Part shown: positions 36,256 to 45,839 of the stretch, in pieces | How the letters are laid out: the number at the start of each line of letters is the position of its first letter | Position numbering within the stretch: position 1 is the first letter of the stretch | Assembly: GCF_011044495.1 (NCBI RefSeq) | Contig: NZ_CP049143.1 | Span: 5,332,001-5,396,000, forward strand | Source of the DNA: Roseimicrobium sp. ORNL1 | GTDB lineage: Bacteria; Verrucomicrobiota; Verrucomicrobiia; Verrucomicrobiales; Verrucomicrobiaceae | Direction: 5' to 3' | Length of the DNA: 64,000 nucleotides | The notes under the pieces: model-generated | Seen by the model: only the letters and a program-made list of their open reading frames with translations | Database searches by the model: none | Told to the model about the DNA's origin: nothing | Program-made: the position numbers and the translations under genes

Positions 36256-36759
36256 ATGCTCCTCACCCTTATCGCCGCCATCGACGAGAACCGCCTGCTG
36301 GCGGATGCACGCGGCATTCCGTGGAAGCTGCCCCGGGATACTGCCCACTTCCGGGAATACACCGCCGACAAGTGGCTGCTCCTTGGGCGCACGACGTATG
36401 AAGAAATGCGTGGCTGGTTCCGCACCGGTCATATGCCTCTCGTGCTCAGCTCACGCTGCGGGTGGGATCCTGAAATCGGGCGTGTCGTCTCTTCCGTGCC
36501 GCAGGCCATCGCCATGGCGGAAGCAGCCGGGCAGACAGAGCTTGTATGCATCGGCGGCGGACAAGTCTTTGCCGCCGCCCTGCCCTATGCGACCAAACTG
36601 CTGATCACACGGGTACATGCCCGCATCGAATCGCAGGGCAGGCCCGTGTACTTTCCCCACTGGGATGACTCCCAGTGGGAGGATGTCATTATTTGGCAGC
36701 AGCCTGCGGATGCAGAGCACGCCCTGTCTTTTGCTCTTCACGCGATGACGCGCCGGTAG
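36256..36759 (+). CDS. folA: Dihydrofolate reductase
   Basis: A 167-residue NADPH-dependent enzyme making tetrahydrofolate. LLTLIAAIDENRLLA begins the fold. IPWKLPRDTAHFREYT contains the catalytic acid (Asp28 region). WLLLGRTTYEEM binds NADPH. VCIGGGQVFAAALPYATKLLITRV is given as VCIGGGQVFAAALPYA and LLITRV. The length is typical. The start codon lies 5 bases after the large inverted repeat. Its last 71 bases overlap the 3' end of the convergent ccsA gene. Confidence 0.92.
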   Translation: MLLTLIAAIDENRLLADARGIPWKLPRDTAHFREYTADKWLLLGRTTYEEMRGWFRTGHMPLVLSSRCGWDPEIGRVVSSVPQAIAMAEAAGQTELVCIGGGQVFAAALPYATKLLITRVHARIESQGRPVYFPHWDDSQWEDVIIWQQPADAEHALSFALHAMTRR

Positions 36760-38974
36760 TGCCACCACCACCGGTGCGGGATTTTTTGTCCACACGCGCA
36801 AGAATCATCCCGACCACCACATAGCCGGCCAGGACTCCCCAAATGGTGTAGAGCCACCTCCAGGCTCCGCTCATTTCACCATAGTTGTGCAAGCCGAAGG
36901 AAAGCTGGTTTGTGGCGAACCATGAGAAGATGGTGATCATGCCCAGCACCACACAGGCTACATGGAAACCAGCCTCGCGAATGTAGCCGCCCAGCCGCGC
37001 GTGGAGGATGATCAGATTCATGAGCACAATCATAAGGGCGCCATTCTCCTTCGGATCCCAGCCCCAGAATCGCCCCCAGGAGTAGTTTGCCCAGATGCCA
37101 CCGAGCACGGTGCCTACCAGCGAGAGGAAGAGACCGGTAAGCACAAACGCGTACGAGATGCGCGTCAGTGTCCGTGCGTCCTCGTCACCTGCTTTCGTGA
37201 TGCGAAAGACACGGCGGGTGACGTACACCATGGAGCAGATGGCAGCCACCATGCCACACGCGTAGCCAAGATTGATGCACGGCACATGCGTCGCGAGCCA
37301 GAAGTTGGTGATCAGCACGGCCTGAAGCTGCACCAGGCTGTCCTTGCCCTCCATTTCGAAGAAGCGGATCGAGAGGAACATGCCCGCCACCCCCGCAATG
37401 CAGGCGACCGTCATCGCCAGACCCTTGCGCCGGCTGAGCCACTCCACCAGCAGCGCCCCAATCACCGAGGCCGTGGTGATGAAGATGATGGTCTCATACA
37501 GGGTCGTGATCGGCGGACGCTCCATGATCAGGCTGCGGATGGTGATACCGACCGTTCCCAGCGCCGCGCCGCTGATCATCGAGACCCAGCAGATGACCTT
37601 GCAGATCCTCTCCCACAAGCCACCCGGTGACACCCAGCTCAAAGCGAGGGCGAGGGCACCAAGGATGAACATGTACAGCGCATTCGTGAAGTAGTCCGCT
37701 CGATGCAACCCAATCTCCATGCCGATGTGTCCTGACTGCCCGCGCTCCGCCGCCGCCTTGGTCAGCAGGTCCACCGCTTCATGGACCTTCGTCTTGAATT
37801 CACCACTGCTCGCCGTGCCTGCCACACGTCCCAGCTCGCCATAGGCGCCCAGCATGGCGTACTCGTGCGGGGAAAGCTCGCCACCCTTCAGCACCACTTC
37901 CTCCATGAGGACACCCGGACTTTTCCAGTTCTCAAGTTTCTTGTCGTCCGGCGGGAAGATGTTGAGCTGTTCCTGAGGCACACTGTTCATCCTCGCGGAC
38001 AGAAGACTGCGGTAGAAATGGAAGAACCACCGGTTTATTGCAGGTGCGGCCGCATCAGGATGCTCCTTGAGGTAGGCCGCCACCTTGGGCAGCAGGGTGG
38101 CAATGGACGGATTGGGGTCATCCGCAGGAGAAAGGATCTCCGCAGGCACCTTGCTGATCTGATCGCCAAACGGCTGCCGGGCGAAATCGAGGTGACCCAG
38201 CATCAGCTCAAAGTCCAGGAAGTCCTGGCTCAGCTTGTAGATGGCACGGTACTCCGGTGAGAGCGTTTGCGGATCCACGCCGCGGAACTCCTCCATTTTT
38301 TCCGCGAGCTTCTCACGCCCCTCGGAAATCTCATTGTAGGAATAGCGGTCCCGCTTGCCCTTGCCGTGCAGGTTCAGGATCACCACCGCGTCCGAGTTGT
38401 CCACCACGAAGACGTTGAGCTCTTTTGCGATGTCCGGGCGGAAGAGCGTGATGAGCAGCCACTCCATGGCGCTGAGCTTCGCGCTGCCCTTCGCATTCAC
38501 CACCGGCTTCCCGGTCTGCGGATCGAGCACCGGCTCGACCTTGCCCGTTGCTTCATTGAACTTCTCCGCACGGAGGCTCTGCTTGCCATGCATCGGCAGT
38601 AGCAGCGTGGTACGCGCCACACTCTCCAGCGGCTTGATGCGACCGTGCTGTTGCACGGGTATCCTTGCCATGGTGTTTACCACTTCGGGATCCAGCAGCG
38701 TTTCCAGTGAGATCAAAGGCACCGGTTTCGCGGCGGCAGGTTCCGCAGGAGCAGTCGTGGTCGCTGCAGGTGTTGGTGCTGCTGCGGGTACAGGCGCAGC
38801 CTCTGGTGCTGCTGGAGATGCAGGTGCAACGGCAGGAGCCGCGGCGGACGCGTGAGGATCCGCCGGCTTGGCGGGAGTTTGAGTTTCCGCCTGCTGGGCA
38901 TTGGCGAGCAGCGGCAGGAGAACCAAGGCGGCAACACACGCCGTGAGGTTCGTCGTCAGACGGGAAGCTTTCAT
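36689..38974 (-). CDS. ccsA: Cytochrome c biogenesis protein CcsA with large periplasmic N-terminal region
   Basis: A 761-residue heme-handling membrane protein of the System II (ResBC) pathway. Residues 1-25 are a signal-like helix, 26-85 an Ala/Pro linker, and 86-430 a soluble region (PVQQHGRIKPLESVART, YSYNEISEGREKL) that is also seen in Bacteroidetes/Verrucomicrobia forms. Residues about 440-740 carry eight or so helices with the heme (WWD) motif WGRFWGWDPKENGAL and conserved His (FWLATHVPCINLGY; NQLSFGLHNYG). It follows resB by 39 bases. The last 23 codons overlap the convergent dihydrofolate reductase gene. Confidence 0.93.
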   Translation of the reverse strand: MKASRLTTNLTACVAALVLLPLLANAQQAETQTPAKPADPHASAAAPAVAPASPAAPEAAPVPAAAPTPAATTTAPAEPAAAKPVPLISLETLLDPEVVNTMARIPVQQHGRIKPLESVARTTLLLPMHGKQSLRAEKFNEATGKVEPVLDPQTGKPVVNAKGSAKLSAMEWLLITLFRPDIAKELNVFVVDNSDAVVILNLHGKGKRDRYSYNEISEGREKLAEKMEEFRGVDPQTLSPEYRAIYKLSQDFLDFELMLGHLDFARQPFGDQISKVPAEILSPADDPNPSIATLLPKVAAYLKEHPDAAAPAINRWFFHFYRSLLSARMNSVPQEQLNIFPPDDKKLENWKSPGVLMEEVVLKGGELSPHEYAMLGAYGELGRVAGTASSGEFKTKVHEAVDLLTKAAAERGQSGHIGMEIGLHRADYFTNALYMFILGALALALSWVSPGGLWERICKVICWVSMISGAALGTVGITIRSLIMERPPITTLYETIIFITTASVIGALLVEWLSRRKGLAMTVACIAGVAGMFLSIRFFEMEGKDSLVQLQAVLITNFWLATHVPCINLGYACGMVAAICSMVYVTRRVFRITKAGDEDARTLTRISYAFVLTGLFLSLVGTVLGGIWANYSWGRFWGWDPKENGALMIVLMNLIILHARLGGYIREAGFHVACVVLGMITIFSWFATNQLSFGLHNYGEMSGAWRWLYTIWGVLAGYVVVGMILARVDKKSRTGGGGTTGASSREEQKTGRALHPQAAAK

Positions 38975-39013: not shown

Positions 39014-40336
39014 TTAGACACTCGGCGGCGCCACAGGCGCTGTCTTCCGTGCGCTTTGGCCAAGGAATTTCAGCAGATGCCAGACAAGGTTCATCAACAG
39101 CCCGATCATCGCGGCGATGAGTGCAATCAATGGCCAGTGGTCGGAGGGATTGCTCGCCACCTGGAACATGGAGGACTGCTGGCCTCCGTGGTCGGCGGCT
39201 TCCGCGTCGAAGGAGCTCTGGAAGAAGGCGTACCCGCCATACCGCAGCGGCTCATTCATCGTGATCACCTTCTCCTCGGACTTTCCGTCACGGATCACCG
39301 TCACATGGCTGGTGAACTTCCTCGCCATGTTCGTGCCGGGATGCGTTTCACGCACGAACTTGTCCAGCTTCACCTCAAACGGCAGGGGATACTGGCGGCG
39401 GCCGATGCTCACGCCGTAGGATTCATCACCAATGGTCACGGTCCAGGGCGCGCGCTCAAGGCGGAAGACGATGCCCAGGTGCTCCGCCTTGGTCTTCTTA
39501 TCGATAGCCTTCACGTAGGCTCCGTTGACGAGTTGCTCATGCTGCAGCGGCTTCCCTTCGGCATCGCGCACAGGCAGTTCCTGGAGGATGAAACCATCCA
39601 CCACCATGCTCTGCGGATCCGACGGCTTCGCGGGGCGGACCGTGCTGTTCGGCATGTAGTTCATCACCATGAGGTCGAAGGGAAGGCTGTCGTTGTAGAA
39701 CGTGCGCGCTTTTCCTTTGGTGAGATCGTCAAACTGGCTGTCAGGAATCATCATCGCCACCCTCTTGCCGTCCTTGGGAGCGGGTTCGAGCTTTTCAATC
39801 TGGATGGCGCTGACGTGAAACGCGTTGAACTCATCCACGGTCTGATTCTCCGTCACCCACACGGCTCCCTCGGACTTTCCAAGCAAGGACACGAGGCCCG
39901 CCAGCAGCATGAACACCACGGAGACGTGCGCAATGAGCACGCCAATGAGGCCGAAGTTTGGCATGACGCTGTTCTTCAGGCCCGCGCGAATGCGCAGGAT
40001 GATGCGGGTGATACCACCGCAGATCATGTTCAGAGCCAGCAGGCCCATCAGCAGTCCACCACCGGGCAGGAAAATGGGCAGCACCCACTCCCCTTCATAG
40101 GGAATCTGCATCGCACGGAGGCAGCAGTCGATGTCGATATTGTAGATGTACCAGGACTCGAAATACTTCCGCTGGCTCTCATAGAGACCATGCTCAAGCT
40201 GCTCCAGCGTCCCGAGGAACGTCATGAGCAACAGCAGCGTGAGCACCACCACGGCAAAGCCGAACGATGCAAAAATATTAAACACCCTCGAGGGGAACGA
40301 GGGGGCCTTGGGGGCAGTCACAGAGTCTTTTTTCAT
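39014..40336 (-). CDS. resB: ResB-like cytochrome c biogenesis protein
   Basis: A 440-residue membrane protein, partner of CcsA. Three N-terminal helices (FASFGFAVVVLTLLLLMTFLG at about 22; a second near 85, GGLLMGLLALNMICGG; a third near 125) frame a large periplasmic domain (SAIQIEKLEPAPKDG, YALFQSSFDAEAADHGGQQSS-like near 390) and a last helix near 405. LGTLEQLEHGLYESQRKYF after helix one is typical of ResB/Ccs1 in this lineage. It overlaps the preceding lipoprotein gene by 4 bases. Confidence 0.92.
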   Translation of the reverse strand: MKKDSVTAPKAPSFPSRVFNIFASFGFAVVVLTLLLLMTFLGTLEQLEHGLYESQRKYFESWYIYNIDIDCCLRAMQIPYEGEWVLPIFLPGGGLLMGLLALNMICGGITRIILRIRAGLKNSVMPNFGLIGVLIAHVSVVFMLLAGLVSLLGKSEGAVWVTENQTVDEFNAFHVSAIQIEKLEPAPKDGKRVAMMIPDSQFDDLTKGKARTFYNDSLPFDLMVMNYMPNSTVRPAKPSDPQSMVVDGFILQELPVRDAEGKPLQHEQLVNGAYVKAIDKKTKAEHLGIVFRLERAPWTVTIGDESYGVSIGRRQYPLPFEVKLDKFVRETHPGTNMARKFTSHVTVIRDGKSEEKVITMNEPLRYGGYAFFQSSFDAEAADHGGQQSSMFQVASNPSDHWPLIALIAAMIGLLMNLVWHLLKFLGQSARKTAPVAPPSV

Positions 40337-41010
40337 CGTTGAACCTTGAGCTGGAGCGAGCGGCTGAATTCATCGAAAGCGGCTTCGTTCTCCTTCACTA
40401 GTGCTTTCGGCCCCACCATTTTGACAAAGATCATAAACTTTTCATCGGCATGGAGAATGCCGAGCATGCGGTAGTCCTTCGCCGCTTCCGCCTTGCCCAT
40501 GTCGGTGAAGTCACCATCAAAAGACACAAACCGGGCCTCATTGTTGAATAAGGGCTTCTTGGGAAGGGCGGCAAATTCCTCCGGTGTGTAAGGCGGCAGC
40601 CCCATCTGGGCGCGCCAGCGGTTCACGTTGGCTTCCATGCCACCACCCCCACCGGCGAGGATGCTCAGGAAGCACTGGCCCTCCTGGTTCGGACCGAATC
40701 GCATGTCCAGCCACCGGATGCCCCGGGCTGCGCCGCTCGGTTTCACCGAGACCCACCCAGTCGGAGTGATCCATTCAAAGATCTGCTCGGCCGCAGGCGT
40801 CTCAGGCGGCGCCATCTCAGGAGGCGCTTCCTGCTCAAGCTGCGGGAACCGGCTCGCGCTGGACGTTCCAATCGGAGGGCGTGTGGAATGTTTGGAGATC
40901 TCGCGTGTCTCCTTGATTTGCACCCTCTCGCCCACTCGATCGCAACCTGTCATGGAGAGGCAGGTCACCGCAGAGGAGAAAAGGAGAATGGAACGTGAAA
41001 TCGGCATCAC
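40333..41010 (-). CDS. Lipoprotein encoded with ResB/CcsA, unknown function
   Basis: A 225-residue protein with a lipobox (LSMTGC, Cys23). After a Pro/Glu-rich linker, residues about 75-225 (FEWITPTGWVSVKPSGAARG, MRFGPNQEGQCFLSILAGGGGG, VNRWRAQMGLPPYTPEEFAALP, MLGILHADEKFMIFVKMVGPK, NEAAFDEFSRSLQ) form one domain seen in PsbP/DUF1795-like proteins, which often assess substrates in the envelope; this is recalled similarity. Because it is translationally coupled to resB, a role in cytochrome maturation or in the quinol oxidase chain is plausible. Confidence 0.78.
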   Translation of the reverse strand: MMPISRSILLFSSAVTCLSMTGCDRVGERVQIKETREISKHSTRPPIGTSSASRFPQLEQEAPPEMAPPETPAAEQIFEWITPTGWVSVKPSGAARGIRWLDMRFGPNQEGQCFLSILAGGGGGMEANVNRWRAQMGLPPYTPEEFAALPKKPLFNNEARFVSFDGDFTDMGKAEAAKDYRMLGILHADEKFMIFVKMVGPKALVKENEAAFDEFSRSLQLKVQR

Positions 41011-41044
41011 AAAAGAAAACGGGGAGTCAGGGAAAACGTTAGAC

Positions 41045-41067
41045 GCGGAACCTGGGTGAGGTTCCGC
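41045..41067 (-). terminator. Hairpin after the cytochrome/LRR gene
   Basis: GCGGAACCT pairs perfectly with AGGTTCCGC around a 5-base loop, 69 bases beyond the stop of the cytochrome/LRR gene. On the minus strand it is followed by GTCTAACGTTTTCCC, a weak T-run. It may reduce read-through into the lipoprotein-resB-ccsA genes. Confidence 0.35.
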
Positions 41068-41135
41068 GAAGAGCGGGGTAAGGAGGGAGCCATTCGCCCT
41101 CCATGAGGAAGCTCACTCGGGCAAGAGCTGCTTCA

Positions 41136-44100
41136 TCATTTCTTGTTCGCTGCCGGAGCCGCGGCGGGTGCAGCCGTTGGCGGTGCATCAGCCGATTTCG
41201 GCTGTGCGGCCGGAGCTGGCGCGGGGGCTGGTGTGGCAGCGGGAGCAGGAGCTGGGGTGGTGGCGGGTTTGGCTTCAGGCTTGGCAGGAGCAGCGGGTGC
41301 AGGCGCAGGGGCCGGAGTCGCCGCAGGCTTTGGAGGCTCAGGCTTCTTCTCCTCTTTCTTCGGCTCGGGCTTCTTTTCTTCCTTCTTGGGCTCGGGAGCA
41401 GGAGGAGCCGGGGGCTTGGCAGCTTCAATCAGCTTCGCAATCTCCGCTTCGCTGAGACCCACGTTCACCACGAGCCCGGGCACCGCGCCTTCGAGCTTCT
41501 TGGCGGCATCTTTCGTCACCGCGGTCTGCCACACGAAGAGTTTCTTCAGCGCCTTGTTGGCAGCGAGTTTCGCAATACCGGCATCCGTCACCTTGGTGCC
41601 GTAGAGATTGAGGTACTCAAGGTTTTGCAGACCCGCCAGCTGCGCGAGACCGGCATCCGTCACGGCGGTGTTTTCCAGATGCAGGCGCTGCAGCGCGGGC
41701 ATCTTGCCGACCGTGGCCAGACCAGCGTCCGTCACCTTGCTGCGGCCGAGATCCAGCCAGGCAATATGCGGGGCGGCAGGAGCCAGCTCAGCCAGTTCCT
41801 TGTCACCAAACTTATCCGCGGCATTCACACATCCGAAGCGAAGCTGCTCGGTGTCCAGCGCGAGCGGCATCAGCGTGGCATTCAGTGCGGTCATCTTCGC
41901 GGTAACTTCCGCCACCGCCTTCTTCTCCGCATCCGTCAGCGGCTTGGCCTTGGGCTTCTCGTCTTTCTTGGCCACGGCATTCGCCGCAGGCTTCGAGCTC
42001 GCGAGACCCTTCAGGAAGGCGTCGATCTCCGGGGACTTCTTTGCCGCAGCGACGGTCAGGTCATCCTTGGCGCCTTCCGCGATCCACCACTCTAGCAGGG
42101 CGATTTCCGCCTTGGTGAGCTGGGGCTCATCGCTCGGCGGCATGTGGTCGTCATCATCCACCGGAAGCTTCGAGCGCACCAGCAGCAGGCTGTCCTTCAC
42201 ATTGCCGCCGATGACCGTGGTCTCACCATCGCTGCCGCCTTTGAGCGCATCGGCGAAGGTGTGGAGCTTCAGCTTGCCCTTGGACTTCTCCGTGCCGTGG
42301 CAAGCCACGCACTTGGCTTCGAGAATGGGCAGCACCACGTCGGCAAAAACCTTGGCATTGGGGTCGCCAGCCTTGGGAAGGGCCGTGCCTTCGACTTTGC
42401 CAGCCGCCGTAGTGGCAGCAGCAGGCGCAGGGGCCGCAGCAGGTTTCGCTGGCGTGGCCGGAGCAGGAGCAGTGGGAGCCGCTGCGGGTGCGGCAGCAGG
42501 TGCAGGTGCCACAGCGGCGACCGCCTTGGCGTTGTCTGCGTCCGTCCAGCCGGTGTTCACCAGCATGGCAGCGTGCTTGGCCTTGTAGGCCTCCGCCGCG
42601 GGGCGAGTCACGCCCGTCTGCCACAGGTAGACAGACTTCAACTTGCCGAGTGCCTCAAGGTTGGTGAAGACCTTGTCCGTCACCTTGGTGCCATAGAGAT
42701 TGAGGTATTCCAGATTGGCCAGGCTCTTGAGCTTCTCAACGCCCGTGTCCGTGATGGCGGTGTTTTCGAGATGCAGTTCCTTGAGGTTCGTCATCTTCAC
42801 GATGCTGTCGCAGGCGGCATCCGTGACCTTGGTGCGGGCCAGATCCAGCGCCACGATGTTCGCGGCAACCGGCTCAAGGTCCTTCAGGTTCGCGTCTGCG
42901 TAGTCCTTGGCCACATTCAATGCAGTGAAGCGGAGTTGCTTCGCGTCTGCGGCGATGGGCGCCAGGCTCGCGCCGGAGCCGTTGATTTTCTTCATCGCCT
43001 CAGCCACGGCAGGGTCCACCTGGGCCGCTGCCTCAGCCATCACCAGGAACGCGGGCGGCGTGCTGCCACCGGAACCGGACTTCGCCTTGGCAAGCAACGT
43101 CTCCACGGTGCCATTCAGCTCGGCGGGGATCCTGGCCTTCGCCTCGGACAGCTTCAGGTCCTTGCTGGCACCTTCCTTCACCCACCAGCTCAGCAGGGCA
43201 ACCTCCTCTTTCTTGGGCTGGGACTTGTTGCTCGGAGGCATGTGCATGTCATCCGGATCATCATCCACCGGGATGAGCATGGTGGTGATCATCAGGCTCT
43301 TGTCCGCCTGGCCAGGCACCACGTTGTACCCCTTGTCACCGCCCTTGAGCATGAGCTCATGGGTGTGAAGGCGGAGGCCGCCCTTGTCCTTGTCAGCGCC
43401 ATGGCAGCCGTAGCAATAGTTCTGCACCACCGGAGCCACCAGCGCGGCATACACTGTGGGGTCTGAGGGATCTCCGTTGGCCACCGCGGTCTGCGGATGG
43501 TCATTTCCCTGCTCAGGAGCGCCATTCTCCGCTGTCTGGGTATCCTTGCGCAGAGGCCCGAAGAAAGACAGCAGCCACTCCTCCCCTTTCTCCACCGAGG
43601 TCTGTGCCACAGGGGGGGCGTGGTCGAGCAGGTAGTCCGGACCATGCACCATGTTGCCCCCGAGGTGTGCACCCACACTCATCACGGCCAGCGTGCTCAC
43701 CATGAAAAAGCGATGCATGATGGGAATGCGACCGCTGGAGTCGGTGATGAGCTTGAACACAAAGGACAAAATCGCGAGCACCGCCGTGGCAAGGCCCAGC
43801 GTCTGGTGTGCCTGGAAAGTCGCGCTGTCATAACCACCCTCGCGGGAGAGCAGCACCCCAAGAATCACCGCAAACACCGCGCCCAGCGCGCCTACACCCA
43901 TGATGAAGGTGATCGCCGGCTTCAGTGCGTCGCCCAGAGGACTGCGGCGGATGGCCAGCACATCCATGAGCGCCGCCAAAAAGAGCACACCCACTGGCAC
44001 GTGCACCGCGATGGGATGGAACCTGCCGAAGAAGAGCGCCCAAGTCGGCGTGGGCACCTCACGTCCAGCATTTTGCAGAGGCGGGTACATGTAGAGCCCC

Positions 44101-44276
44101 AGGGCAAACACCACAATGATCCCCACTGCGGACGCCCACCCCAAAAGTGAAGTGCGTGGGGTGCGGTTCGCAGGAATGGGCTGATCAGAAGCGTCGTCGG
44201 GGCTCAAGCTGGCAGCGGAAGCGGTCGGCATGGGTAAGGGAGCGGGGTAATATACAGGTGAGGAGACGGGATACAA
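41136..44276 (-). CDS. Membrane c-type cytochrome with duplicated cytochrome-plus-leucine-rich-repeat modules
   Basis: A 1046-residue protein. Residues about 45-215 hold five helices resembling DUF2231 (FFGRFHPIAVHVPVGVLFL). Then come two copies of one module: a PSCyt1-like cytochrome with CXXCH (CYGCHGADKDKGGLRLH; CVACHGTEKSKGKLKLH), a conserved MPPS metal/heme ligand region, LSWWVKEGA/LEWWIAEGA, a helical spacer, and a set of leucine-rich repeats (LKELHLENTAITDTGVEKL; LQRLHLENTAVTDAGLAQL; LEYLNLYGTKVTD in both). The two are joined and closed by Pro/Ala/Lys linkers; the last 120 residues are almost only Pro, Ala, Lys and Glu. Heme is attached outside the membrane, consistent with ResB/CcsA genes downstream. 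A role in respiration or in polymer sensing is unknown. Confidence 0.88.
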   Translation of the reverse strand: MYPVSSPVYYPAPLPMPTASAASLSPDDASDQPIPANRTPRTSLLGWASAVGIIVVFALGLYMYPPLQNAGREVPTPTWALFFGRFHPIAVHVPVGVLFLAALMDVLAIRRSPLGDALKPAITFIMGVGALGAVFAVILGVLLSREGGYDSATFQAHQTLGLATAVLAILSFVFKLITDSSGRIPIMHRFFMVSTLAVMSVGAHLGGNMVHGPDYLLDHAPPVAQTSVEKGEEWLLSFFGPLRKDTQTAENGAPEQGNDHPQTAVANGDPSDPTVYAALVAPVVQNYCYGCHGADKDKGGLRLHTHELMLKGGDKGYNVVPGQADKSLMITTMLIPVDDDPDDMHMPPSNKSQPKKEEVALLSWWVKEGASKDLKLSEAKARIPAELNGTVETLLAKAKSGSGGSTPPAFLVMAEAAAQVDPAVAEAMKKINGSGASLAPIAADAKQLRFTALNVAKDYADANLKDLEPVAANIVALDLARTKVTDAACDSIVKMTNLKELHLENTAITDTGVEKLKSLANLEYLNLYGTKVTDKVFTNLEALGKLKSVYLWQTGVTRPAAEAYKAKHAAMLVNTGWTDADNAKAVAAVAPAPAAAPAAAPTAPAPATPAKPAAAPAPAAATTAAGKVEGTALPKAGDPNAKVFADVVLPILEAKCVACHGTEKSKGKLKLHTFADALKGGSDGETTVIGGNVKDSLLLVRSKLPVDDDDHMPPSDEPQLTKAEIALLEWWIAEGAKDDLTVAAAKKSPEIDAFLKGLASSKPAANAVAKKDEKPKAKPLTDAEKKAVAEVTAKMTALNATLMPLALDTEQLRFGCVNAADKFGDKELAELAPAAPHIAWLDLGRSKVTDAGLATVGKMPALQRLHLENTAVTDAGLAQLAGLQNLEYLNLYGTKVTDAGIAKLAANKALKKLFVWQTAVTKDAAKKLEGAVPGLVVNVGLSEAEIAKLIEAAKPPAPPAPEPKKEEKKPEPKKEEKKPEPPKPAATPAPAPAPAAPAKPEAKPATTPAPAPAATPAPAPAPAAQPKSADAPPTAAPAAAPAANKK

Positions 44277-44342: not shown

Positions 44343-45839
44343 TTACCCGGCAAAGTAGCCGTTCTGAAGGTCATACGGGAGTTGGAGCAATGTCAGTACA
44401 AGCCAGAAAGCAAGAAACACCAGCGTCAGCGCCTTGGTGGTGGAGATGGTCCAGCTTCCCAGTTTGAACGAATCACGTCGCAGCATGGCCGCCACGGCAG
44501 TCATGCAGAACAAAAGCGGCACGAGCGAAATGGAATTGAGCAGTCGCGGCCCCACCTTCAGCGGTGTGAACCAGCCAAAGAGGTAGACCAGCACGGTGAG
44601 AAAGGCGGCCAGGAACAAGATGCCCCCACTCCACGACCACGTGCCGAAGACTGCCTCATTCCACCGCCGTGAAGCAGCCCACACCACAATCCCAGCCCAC
44701 ATGATTTGTAGCCAGTGGATGGCGGTGTACTCGTCGTAGTTGTTCGTGAACATCATGGAGACGCCCTTCACGAAGCGCTTCTTGATCTGCGGCCAGGTGT
44801 GCTGATTCCAGTAATTCTTTGCCGTGGGCAGTGCCTCGGGGTGATCGATTTTTCCGTCTCCATCCTTGTCAACGAGCGAGAGGTCGCGATCGAGGCCCAT
44901 CTTTTGCAGCTCATGCTTCTGCTGCGTGTCCTCCGCCCACATGTAGTACTTGCTCTGCACATTGTGGAAGGGATCGCCGAACAGCTTCCACGACGTGTAC
45001 AGGTACTGGGACATCGGCAGGATATAGGCACCCAGCGTCACCAATCCCGCGATCACAATGGCCCTCCTCCGCGGCCAGTCCCTCGCACAGAGAAGCTGTA
45101 GCCCCTGGATCAGTCCCATGAGGCCCAGCGCCACCAGCGCATTGGCCTTCGTCAGGTGCCACGCACACAGGACAAGTCCACAGACGAGCGCATTCTTCCA
45201 CGTGGGCTCATGCAGCGTCTTCACCACCATGAATGTGCCGACGGTGATCAAAGTCGTGAGCAGGATCTCCGGCTGCACGTAGGGAGACTTCAGCATGTAA
45301 AGCTGGAAGGCCGCCACCAGGATGAACGCCACGGCCAGCCAGTTCCCCAGCCACCCACGAAAGACAAAAAACATGAGCACCAGGCAGGCGAGCGACAGGT
45401 AGATATTGAACGCCCGCGCCGTGGGGAAGAAGTCGGAAACATACTGCCGCTGCGCCTCGATGGTGGGCTCCATCTTCACCTCGGGCGCTGCAAACGCCAA
45501 CAGCCACATGTACATCGGCATGCGCATGCGGGTGGTGAACTGGCTGATGCCATGCTCACGCAGGTTCTGCGCGTAGTTCATGTACACCCGCTGGTCATTC
45601 ATGTCGAAGGAGCGCAACGGCCTGCCGGCCTTCTCCTGGGCCTCAAAACTCCCTCCGTAAATGTGCTGCCGCTCATAGGCGAGTTGCTTGTCGATGGTGC
45701 TGGACACCTCCGTGCCGTGCTGGATGGCCCGTGCCACATACCACCACGCCGCGACCGCCAGGCATGCCACCACCACCGCGGTGAACCACCGAGGCGCCTT
45801 CGTACCGGGAGCGAGCAACTGTCGCAGAAAATCAGCCAT
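44343..45839 (-). CDS. Polytopic membrane protein, GT-C glycosyltransferase-like, with an EF-hand-like loop
   Basis: A 498-residue protein with about 10-11 hydrophobic helices. An early extracytoplasmic segment (SFDMNDQRVYMNYAQNLREHG) resembles the first loop of ArnT/PMT-type GT-C enzymes, which contains acidic catalytic residues. A soluble loop near residue 315-330 reads LVDKDGDGKIDHPEALP, a canonical EF-hand calcium loop pattern (D-x-D-G-D-G-x-I-D). The likely role is transfer of a sugar from a polyprenyl donor; no donor or acceptor can be named. It lies 66 bases upstream of the cytochrome/LRR gene in the same direction. Confidence 0.75.
   Translation of the reverse strand: MADFLRQLLAPGTKAPRWFTAVVVACLAVAAWWYVARAIQHGTEVSSTIDKQLAYERQHIYGGSFEAQEKAGRPLRSFDMNDQRVYMNYAQNLREHGISQFTTRMRMPMYMWLLAFAAPEVKMEPTIEAQRQYVSDFFPTARAFNIYLSLACLVLMFFVFRGWLGNWLAVAFILVAAFQLYMLKSPYVQPEILLTTLITVGTFMVVKTLHEPTWKNALVCGLVLCAWHLTKANALVALGLMGLIQGLQLLCARDWPRRRAIVIAGLVTLGAYILPMSQYLYTSWKLFGDPFHNVQSKYYMWAEDTQQKHELQKMGLDRDLSLVDKDGDGKIDHPEALPTAKNYWNQHTWPQIKKRFVKGVSMMFTNNYDEYTAIHWLQIMWAGIVVWAASRRWNEAVFGTWSWSGGILFLAAFLTVLVYLFGWFTPLKVGPRLLNSISLVPLLFCMTAVAAMLRRDSFKLGSWTISTTKALTLVFLAFWLVLTLLQLPYDLQNGYFAG

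What the first reader, a model, noticed from the sequence alone, without database searches (positions are those of the whole stretch)
41136..44276. Membrane cytochrome with duplicated heme-plus-LRR modules
Two full copies of cytochrome, spacer and leucine-rich repeats in one chain, with a DUF2231-like membrane part and a 120-residue Pro/Ala/Lys tail. LRRs suggest recognition; heme suggests electron transfer. The pairing could couple binding of a surface ligand to respiration.
Basis: partly seen in the sequence, partly recalled or inferred. Interest (0 to 1): 0.5.

Follow-up and report, generated by a model that had tools for sequence, protein, structure and literature searches.

The report
Membrane cytochrome with doubled heme-LRR modules
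A bacterial inner-membrane protein carries two heme-binding cytochrome domains, each followed by a leucine-rich-repeat domain; it looks like an electron-transfer protein that docks periplasmic partners rather than a sensor of the cell surface, and its membrane part may be an unrecognised electron-carrying domain.

Summary
One minus-strand ORF (44276..41136, 1046 aa) reads DUF2231 membrane domain, PSCyt1 cytochrome, LRR, PSCyt1, LRR, low-complexity tail. The two modules are 45% identical over 292 residues and descend from one duplication that predates the sampled genera of the family. Single-module versions exist elsewhere in the class and in one Bacteroidota genome. In 17 of 25 other family loci the chain is split into DUF2231-cyt1 and an exported LRR1-cyt2-LRR2. 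In 22 of 25 a lipoprotein gene and ResB/CcsA heme-attachment genes follow. The DUF2231 part has five invariant histidines, predicted on the periplasmic face. In the same class DUF2231 is also fused to Rieske, YHS and (in reverse order) PSCyt1 domains; the reverse-order fusions keep only three of the five. Most likely this is an inner-membrane electron-transfer protein whose LRRs dock periplasmic partners. A surface-ligand sensor is not supported: predicted topology puts the LRRs in the periplasm. Heme or metal binding by DUF2231 is inferred, not shown. New variant of a known kind, moderate interest.

The parts
41136..44276 (-). DUF2231-PSCyt1-LRR-PSCyt1-LRR protein, 1046 aa from TTG; ATG at 44231 is the likelier start
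44088..44156 (-). first transmembrane helix, residues 41-63 (N-terminus taken to be in the cytoplasm)
   Evidence: AlphaFold2 helix and hydropathy
43647..44021 (-). DUF2231 four-helix membrane domain, residues 86-210
   Evidence: Pfam PF09990 31.8 bits; pLDDT of ten-residue blocks mostly 76-95
43644..44018 (-). span of five invariant histidines H87, H92, H157, H204, H211, all predicted at the periplasmic face
   Evidence: 52 of 52 rows, 23 of 23 chosen rows, loop charges
43230..43415 (-). cytochrome c domain 1 (PSCyt1, CYGCH ... HMPP)
   Evidence: place
42564..43001 (-). leucine-rich-repeat domain 1, residues about 426-571
   Evidence: profile match (L051); LRR fold
42129..42311 (-). cytochrome c domain 2 (PSCyt1, CVACH ... 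HMPP)
41472..41909 (-). leucine-rich-repeat domain 2, residues about 790-935
   Evidence: profile match (L051)
41139..41456 (-). low-complexity Pro/Ala/Lys/Glu tail, about residues 941-1046
   Evidence: translation
40333..41010 (-). gene X: conserved operon neighbour, lipoprotein-like N-terminus by eye (invariant Cys), PsbP-like predicted fold
39014..40336 (-). ResB-like system II cytochrome c maturation protein; only ResB locus found in this genome
   Evidence: PF05140 E 2.4e-24
36689..38974 (-). CcsA/CcsB-type heme attachment protein (WWD-like stretch by eye)
   Evidence: PF01578 E 2.8e-24; TIGR03144 matched below its cut-off

Best explanation
It is an inner-membrane electron-transfer protein. 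The DUF2231 helical bundle holds a histidine cluster at the periplasmic face, probably binding one or two hemes or another redox metal. It exchanges electrons with the two tethered periplasmic cytochrome c domains, and these with periplasmic redox partners. The LRR domain that follows each heme domain is a docking surface for those partners. The protein is probably produced together with the machinery that attaches its hemes. Shown by sequence: the architecture, the conserved putative ligands, the old duplication, the gene neighbourhood. Inferred: heme or metal in DUF2231, direction of electron flow, identity of partners, LRR docking, co-transcription.
For: CXXCH 86/86 and Met motif 84/86. Five His invariant in the DUF2231-then-cytochrome group (52/52 rows; 23/23) and also in L182 (genome G100), which was in neither set. 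In 20 other DUF2231 proteins: H87 20/20, H157 19/19, H92 16/20, H204 10/19, H211 2/16 in one alignment and 0/18 in another. DUF2231 is also fused to Rieske, YHS and, in reverse order, PSCyt1. Loop charges place the five His and the cytochromes on the same side. ResB/CcsA follow in 22 of 25 distinct family loci; only one ResB locus in the genome. Single-module relatives lie near PSCyt1-PSCyt2-PSD1 and DUF1501 genes in two genomes of the class and one Bacteroidota.
Against: The five reverse-order PSCyt1-DUF2231 proteins keep only H87, H92 and H157, so the other two His are not needed for partnership with a cytochrome as such. No solved relative of the DUF2231 part was found. Matches to heme-b membrane families are too weak to count (b561 E 0.0026 and 0.0032; COX15-CtaA E 0.0054; PF01292 E 0.44), and the best other Pfam matches of the group are DUF6220 and DUF998 (E 0.0006 and 0.0009, four members each), not heme families that I know of. 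pTM 0.49 gives no reliable domain arrangement. A His cluster on one face could bind copper or zinc. No quinone site or partner was identified.
Confidence: 0.5

Rival explanations
1. It is a dedicated electron acceptor or anchor subunit for one periplasmic PSCyt1/DUF1549/DUF1553 plus DUF1501 system; the LRR fits that one partner, and in this family the genes have become unlinked.
For: Such genes lie near the single-module gene in L035, L134 and L136. Of 22 PSCyt1-rich genomes (10 or more matches), 13 have a strong DUF2231-cyt hit, against 11 of the other 119.
Against: In the family the downstream neighbours are heme-attachment genes. 11 genomes with few PSCyt1 matches have it and 9 PSCyt1-rich ones lack a strong hit. 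The neighbours examined at L130, L131 and L037 are not of this kind.
Confidence: 0.2
2. It is a cytochrome c maturation factor: the LRRs hold apocytochromes or the hemes supply electrons for the neighbouring CcsBA heme-attachment complex.
For: Conserved neighbourhood with X, ResB and CcsA (22 of 25 loci); LRR-only relatives lie near a CcsA-like gene in two planctomycete contigs (L047, L049).
Against: My ResB/CcsA profiles found neither gene in the fetched stretches around the single-module loci; 3 of 25 family loci are unlinked.
Confidence: 0.15
3. One reading: a receptor that couples binding of a surface ligand by the LRRs to respiration.
For: LRR folds are often binding folds; the model has one.
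Against: Helical membrane anchor with LRRs predicted in the periplasm; no signalling domain in the Pfam scan.
Confidence: 0.06
4. DUF2231 is only a membrane anchor or a copper/zinc site; the protein is a tethered pair of cytochromes.
For: YHS-DUF2231 fusions suggest metal handling; no proven heme-b kinship; reverse-order cytochrome fusions lack H204 and H211.
Against: Two further His invariant in this group only and repeated fusion to redox domains are more than an anchor needs.
Confidence: 0.15

Closest known systems
PSCyt1 (PF07635, 'Planctomycete cytochrome C') proteins of Planctomycetes and Verrucomicrobia (PMC5615132)
   Same: Both heme domains belong to PSCyt1; the genome holds 62 PSCyt1 matches
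   Different: Section 13 of PMC5615132 names PSD domains, carbohydrate-binding modules and Big_2/WD40/F5_F8 as partners, not LRR or DUF2231 (figures not seen)
DUF2231 (PF09990) membrane proteins, including Rieske, YHS and reverse-order PSCyt1 fusions
   Same: Same membrane domain with conserved H87 and H157
   Different: Here five His are invariant and two heme-LRR modules follow
Single-module DUF2231-PSCyt1-LRR proteins (L130, L132-L134, L136, and L035 in Foetidibacter, Bacteroidota)
   Same: Same order of domains in one chain
   Different: One module only; in three of them near PSCyt1-PSCyt2-PSD1 and DUF1501 genes
Cytochrome b561 / ferric reductase type heme-b membrane bundles
   Same: Helical membrane bundle with several conserved His; weak Pfam matches only
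   Different: All five His predicted on one face; no significant sequence match

Membership tests
PSCyt1 (PF07635) | match above the curated score | tested here: met
   96.6 bits against 22, two stretches
PSCyt1 (PF07635) | CXXCH heme attachment site and a C-terminal Met | tested here: met
   present in both copies; 86/86 and 84/86 across relatives (profile-selected)
PSCyt1 (PF07635) | covalently bound heme | not testable with these tools
   needs heme stain or spectra
DUF2231 (PF09990) | match above the curated score | tested here: met
   31.8 bits against 26.4
Leucine-rich-repeat proteins | LRR profile match and LRR fold in the model | tested here: met
   LRR_4 50.2 bits against 27; Z 17.3, 139 residues, rmsd 2.2 to FBXL2 chain 6o60_C
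Diheme cytochrome b561 superfamily | significant sequence or fold similarity to heme-b bundles | tested here: inconclusive
   best Pfam E about 0.003, PDB profile E 0.096; fold list filled by LRR chains
Diheme cytochrome b561 superfamily | His pairs near both faces of the membrane (feature recalled) | tested here: inconclusive
   all five invariant His predicted at one face, but from loop charges only
Surface LRR receptors (internalin-like) | exposure on the cell surface | tested here: inconclusive
   prediction points to inner membrane and periplasm; location not measured

The most novel reading that the evidence does not exclude
DUF2231 is an unrecognised membrane electron-transfer domain that binds heme or redox metal. 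In this family its five-His, heme-LRR-doubled form is the single inner-membrane hub through which dozens of periplasmic PSCyt1 proteins (62 PSCyt1 matches but one DUF2231 gene and one ResB locus in this genome) exchange electrons with the respiratory chain, with the LRRs as docking adaptors.
Probability: 0.18. Interest if true: 0.7.

Novelty: new variant of a known kind. Interest (0 to 1): 0.42.

Why it matters
[quoted passage not shown] their electron acceptor is not known to me. If this single-copy membrane protein is that acceptor, one gene deletion would test what the whole expansion does. The fusion pattern also gives a concrete, testable function for DUF2231.

Tried and rejected
Whether the repeat was chance: rejected by module alignment and domain scores. 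Whether the duplication is recent: rejected, because module 2 forms one clade of 26/26 with support 100/100. Module 1 is not one clade in the best tree (it is in 78% of 200 bootstrap trees), and the branch between family and outgroups is weak (40/89), so the exact root of the duplication is open.

A universal PSCyt1 hub: weakened, since 9 of 22 PSCyt1-rich genomes lack a strong hit to this form (tallied by eye). Three of those nine (G175, G183, G188) carry the reverse-order fusion (in L188 and L189 the PSCyt1 match is just under its cut-off). One search scored at most 41 candidates a genome.

Solved-structure relatives of DUF2231: none convincing. The fold comparison listed LRR chains almost only, so DUF2231 and the cytochrome are barely tested; one row covers model residues 1-177 (talin R10, Z 13.1, 4% identity), which for helical bundles may mean only a common arrangement. 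Papers: searches for PSCyt1 with LRR and DUF2231, DUF2231 (16), PSCyt1/PF07635 (17), LRR with cytochrome and PVC terms, DUF1549/DUF1553/DUF1501 (68), Rieske with DUF2231 (75) listed no paper whose listing showed this architecture.

Full report
OBSERVATION. The ORF is real and on the minus strand. Pfam gives DUF2231, two PSCyt1 stretches and LRRs above cut-off; the NCBIfam matches are all below their cut-offs. Module 1 and module 2 align over 292 residues at 44.5% identity. The likely start is ATG at 44231, since L053 and L056 show the same MP.SAASL stretch.

SURROUNDINGS. On the same strand follow gene X, ResB and a CcsA/CcsB-type protein; X and ResB overlap by 4 bases. No minus-strand terminator-like site was listed in the gap 41010-41136. 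In this genome the searches found one ResB locus, one DUF2231 gene and 62 PSCyt1 matches. X was modelled (mean pLDDT 73) and resembles Tsi3 and PsbP chains (E 2.7e-5 to 1.2e-4, TM-score by target about 0.5-0.6) and more weakly DcrB (E 0.011); its job is unknown.

RELATIVES. In the search of 59 genomes of the same family every genome had matches to the first half of the protein; these include other PSCyt1 genes, so this is not a count of orthologs. I annotated 25 distinct family loci besides the window, leaving out L113 and L148, which repeat L031 and L034. Six are fused in one chain with both modules (L031, L032, L110, L111, L112, and L115, whose LRR1 is short). L114 is fused but lacks LRR1. 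L034 is fused from cyt1 onward and cut by its contig end. Seventeen are split into DUF2231-cyt1 and LRR1-(cyt)-cyt2-LRR2. By eye the second gene begins with a plain signal peptide in 15 of 17; in L116 and L147 it is longer and less typical. X, ResB and CcsA follow in 22 of 25; L118, L124 and L125 lack them in the fetched stretch.

AGE OF THE DUPLICATION. Separate trees and a concatenated tree of 64 rows put all 26 second modules in one clade (100/100). So the duplication is older than the sampled genera. The first modules fall into a fused group of six and a mostly split group of 18 (which also holds L034). Extra middle cytochromes appear in three places on the tree; in two of them they are sister to the last cytochrome of the same genomes, so they arose locally more than once. 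Because single-chain DUF2231-cyt-LRR occurs in outgroups (L130, L132, L133, L134, L136, L035), the fused form is probably ancestral and the split derived. That order is inferred.

MEMBRANE DOMAIN. H87, H92, H157, H204 and H211 are invariant in 52 of 52 rows (near-duplicates included), in 23 of 23 chosen rows, and in L182, a DUF2231-cytochrome protein outside both sets. In 20 other DUF2231 proteins of the class H87 is 20/20, H157 19/19, H92 16/20, H204 10/19, and H211 2/16 or 0/18 depending on the alignment (gaps left out). One of these 20 (G188) has a cytochrome in front; not every full frame was read. The five reverse-order PSCyt1-DUF2231 proteins keep H87, H92 and H157 but have F or Y at 204 and Y, N or A at 211, which counts against the last two His being a general need of cytochrome fusion. 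Mean Lys+Arg over 52 rows is 2.58 and 3.02 in the two predicted inner loops, and 1.58, 0.96 and 2.04 in the three predicted outer stretches. This favours the five His lying at the periplasmic face, but the contrast is modest. The class also contains PSCyt1-DUF2231 (L183, L184, L187; L188 and L189 just under the PSCyt1 cut-off), YHS-DUF2231 (L185, L186) and DUF2231-Rieske (L179) proteins. Repeated fusion to redox or metal domains is my main reason for reading DUF2231 as an electron-transfer or metal-binding membrane domain. Kinship to heme-b bundles is not shown.

LRR. The AlphaFold2 model (mean pLDDT 82.6, pTM 0.49) has an ordinary LRR fold. Related LRR-only proteins exist in Planctomycetota and Acidobacteriota contigs. 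The domain therefore looks like a mobile binding part; the partner is unknown.

FUNCTIONAL CONTEXT. In three loci (L035 Bacteroidota; L134 and L136, same class) the single-module gene lies near PSCyt1-PSCyt2-PSD1 and DUF1501 genes, in L035 with a TIM-barrel gene between. The six neighbours examined at L131 (three), L037 (two; a cyt-LRR protein without DUF2231) and L130 (one) are not of this kind. Of 141 class genomes, 22 have ten or more PSCyt1 matches, and 13 of these have a strong DUF2231-cyt hit (over 120 bits), against 11 of 119 others (tallied by eye). The 18 listed genomes of genus g12 in the same order have neither. This is a correlation among related genomes, not a test.

VERDICT. Architecture confirmed; electron transfer likely; surface sensing unsupported. 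DUF2231 as a redox membrane domain is the most interesting testable outcome.

Noticed in passing
   Followed up: partly
L185:367-1362 (+), L186:115-939 (-): YHS metal-binding domain in front of DUF2231.
   Followed up: partly
L183, L184, L187, L188, L189: Reverse-order PSCyt1-DUF2231 proteins with only three of the five His; in L188 and L189 the PSCyt1 match is just under its cut-off.
   Followed up: partly
window 40333-41010 (-): Conserved gene X, lipoprotein-like by eye, with a PsbP-like predicted fold beside heme-attachment genes; no Pfam match up to E 10.
   Followed up: partly
L047:7872-8627, L049:2753-3571: Planctomycete LRR-only proteins about 1.4 kb from a CcsA-like gene; the L047 protein has a Lys/Glu/Pro tail like the window's.
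   Followed up: no
L032, L034, L111, L112, L116, L117, L129, L147: Versions with three cytochrome domains.
   Followed up: partly
window 44343-45839 (-): Upstream membrane protein without a Pfam match above cut-off, kept next to the fused form in L110, L111, L112 and L114 and, partly visible, L032.
   Followed up: no
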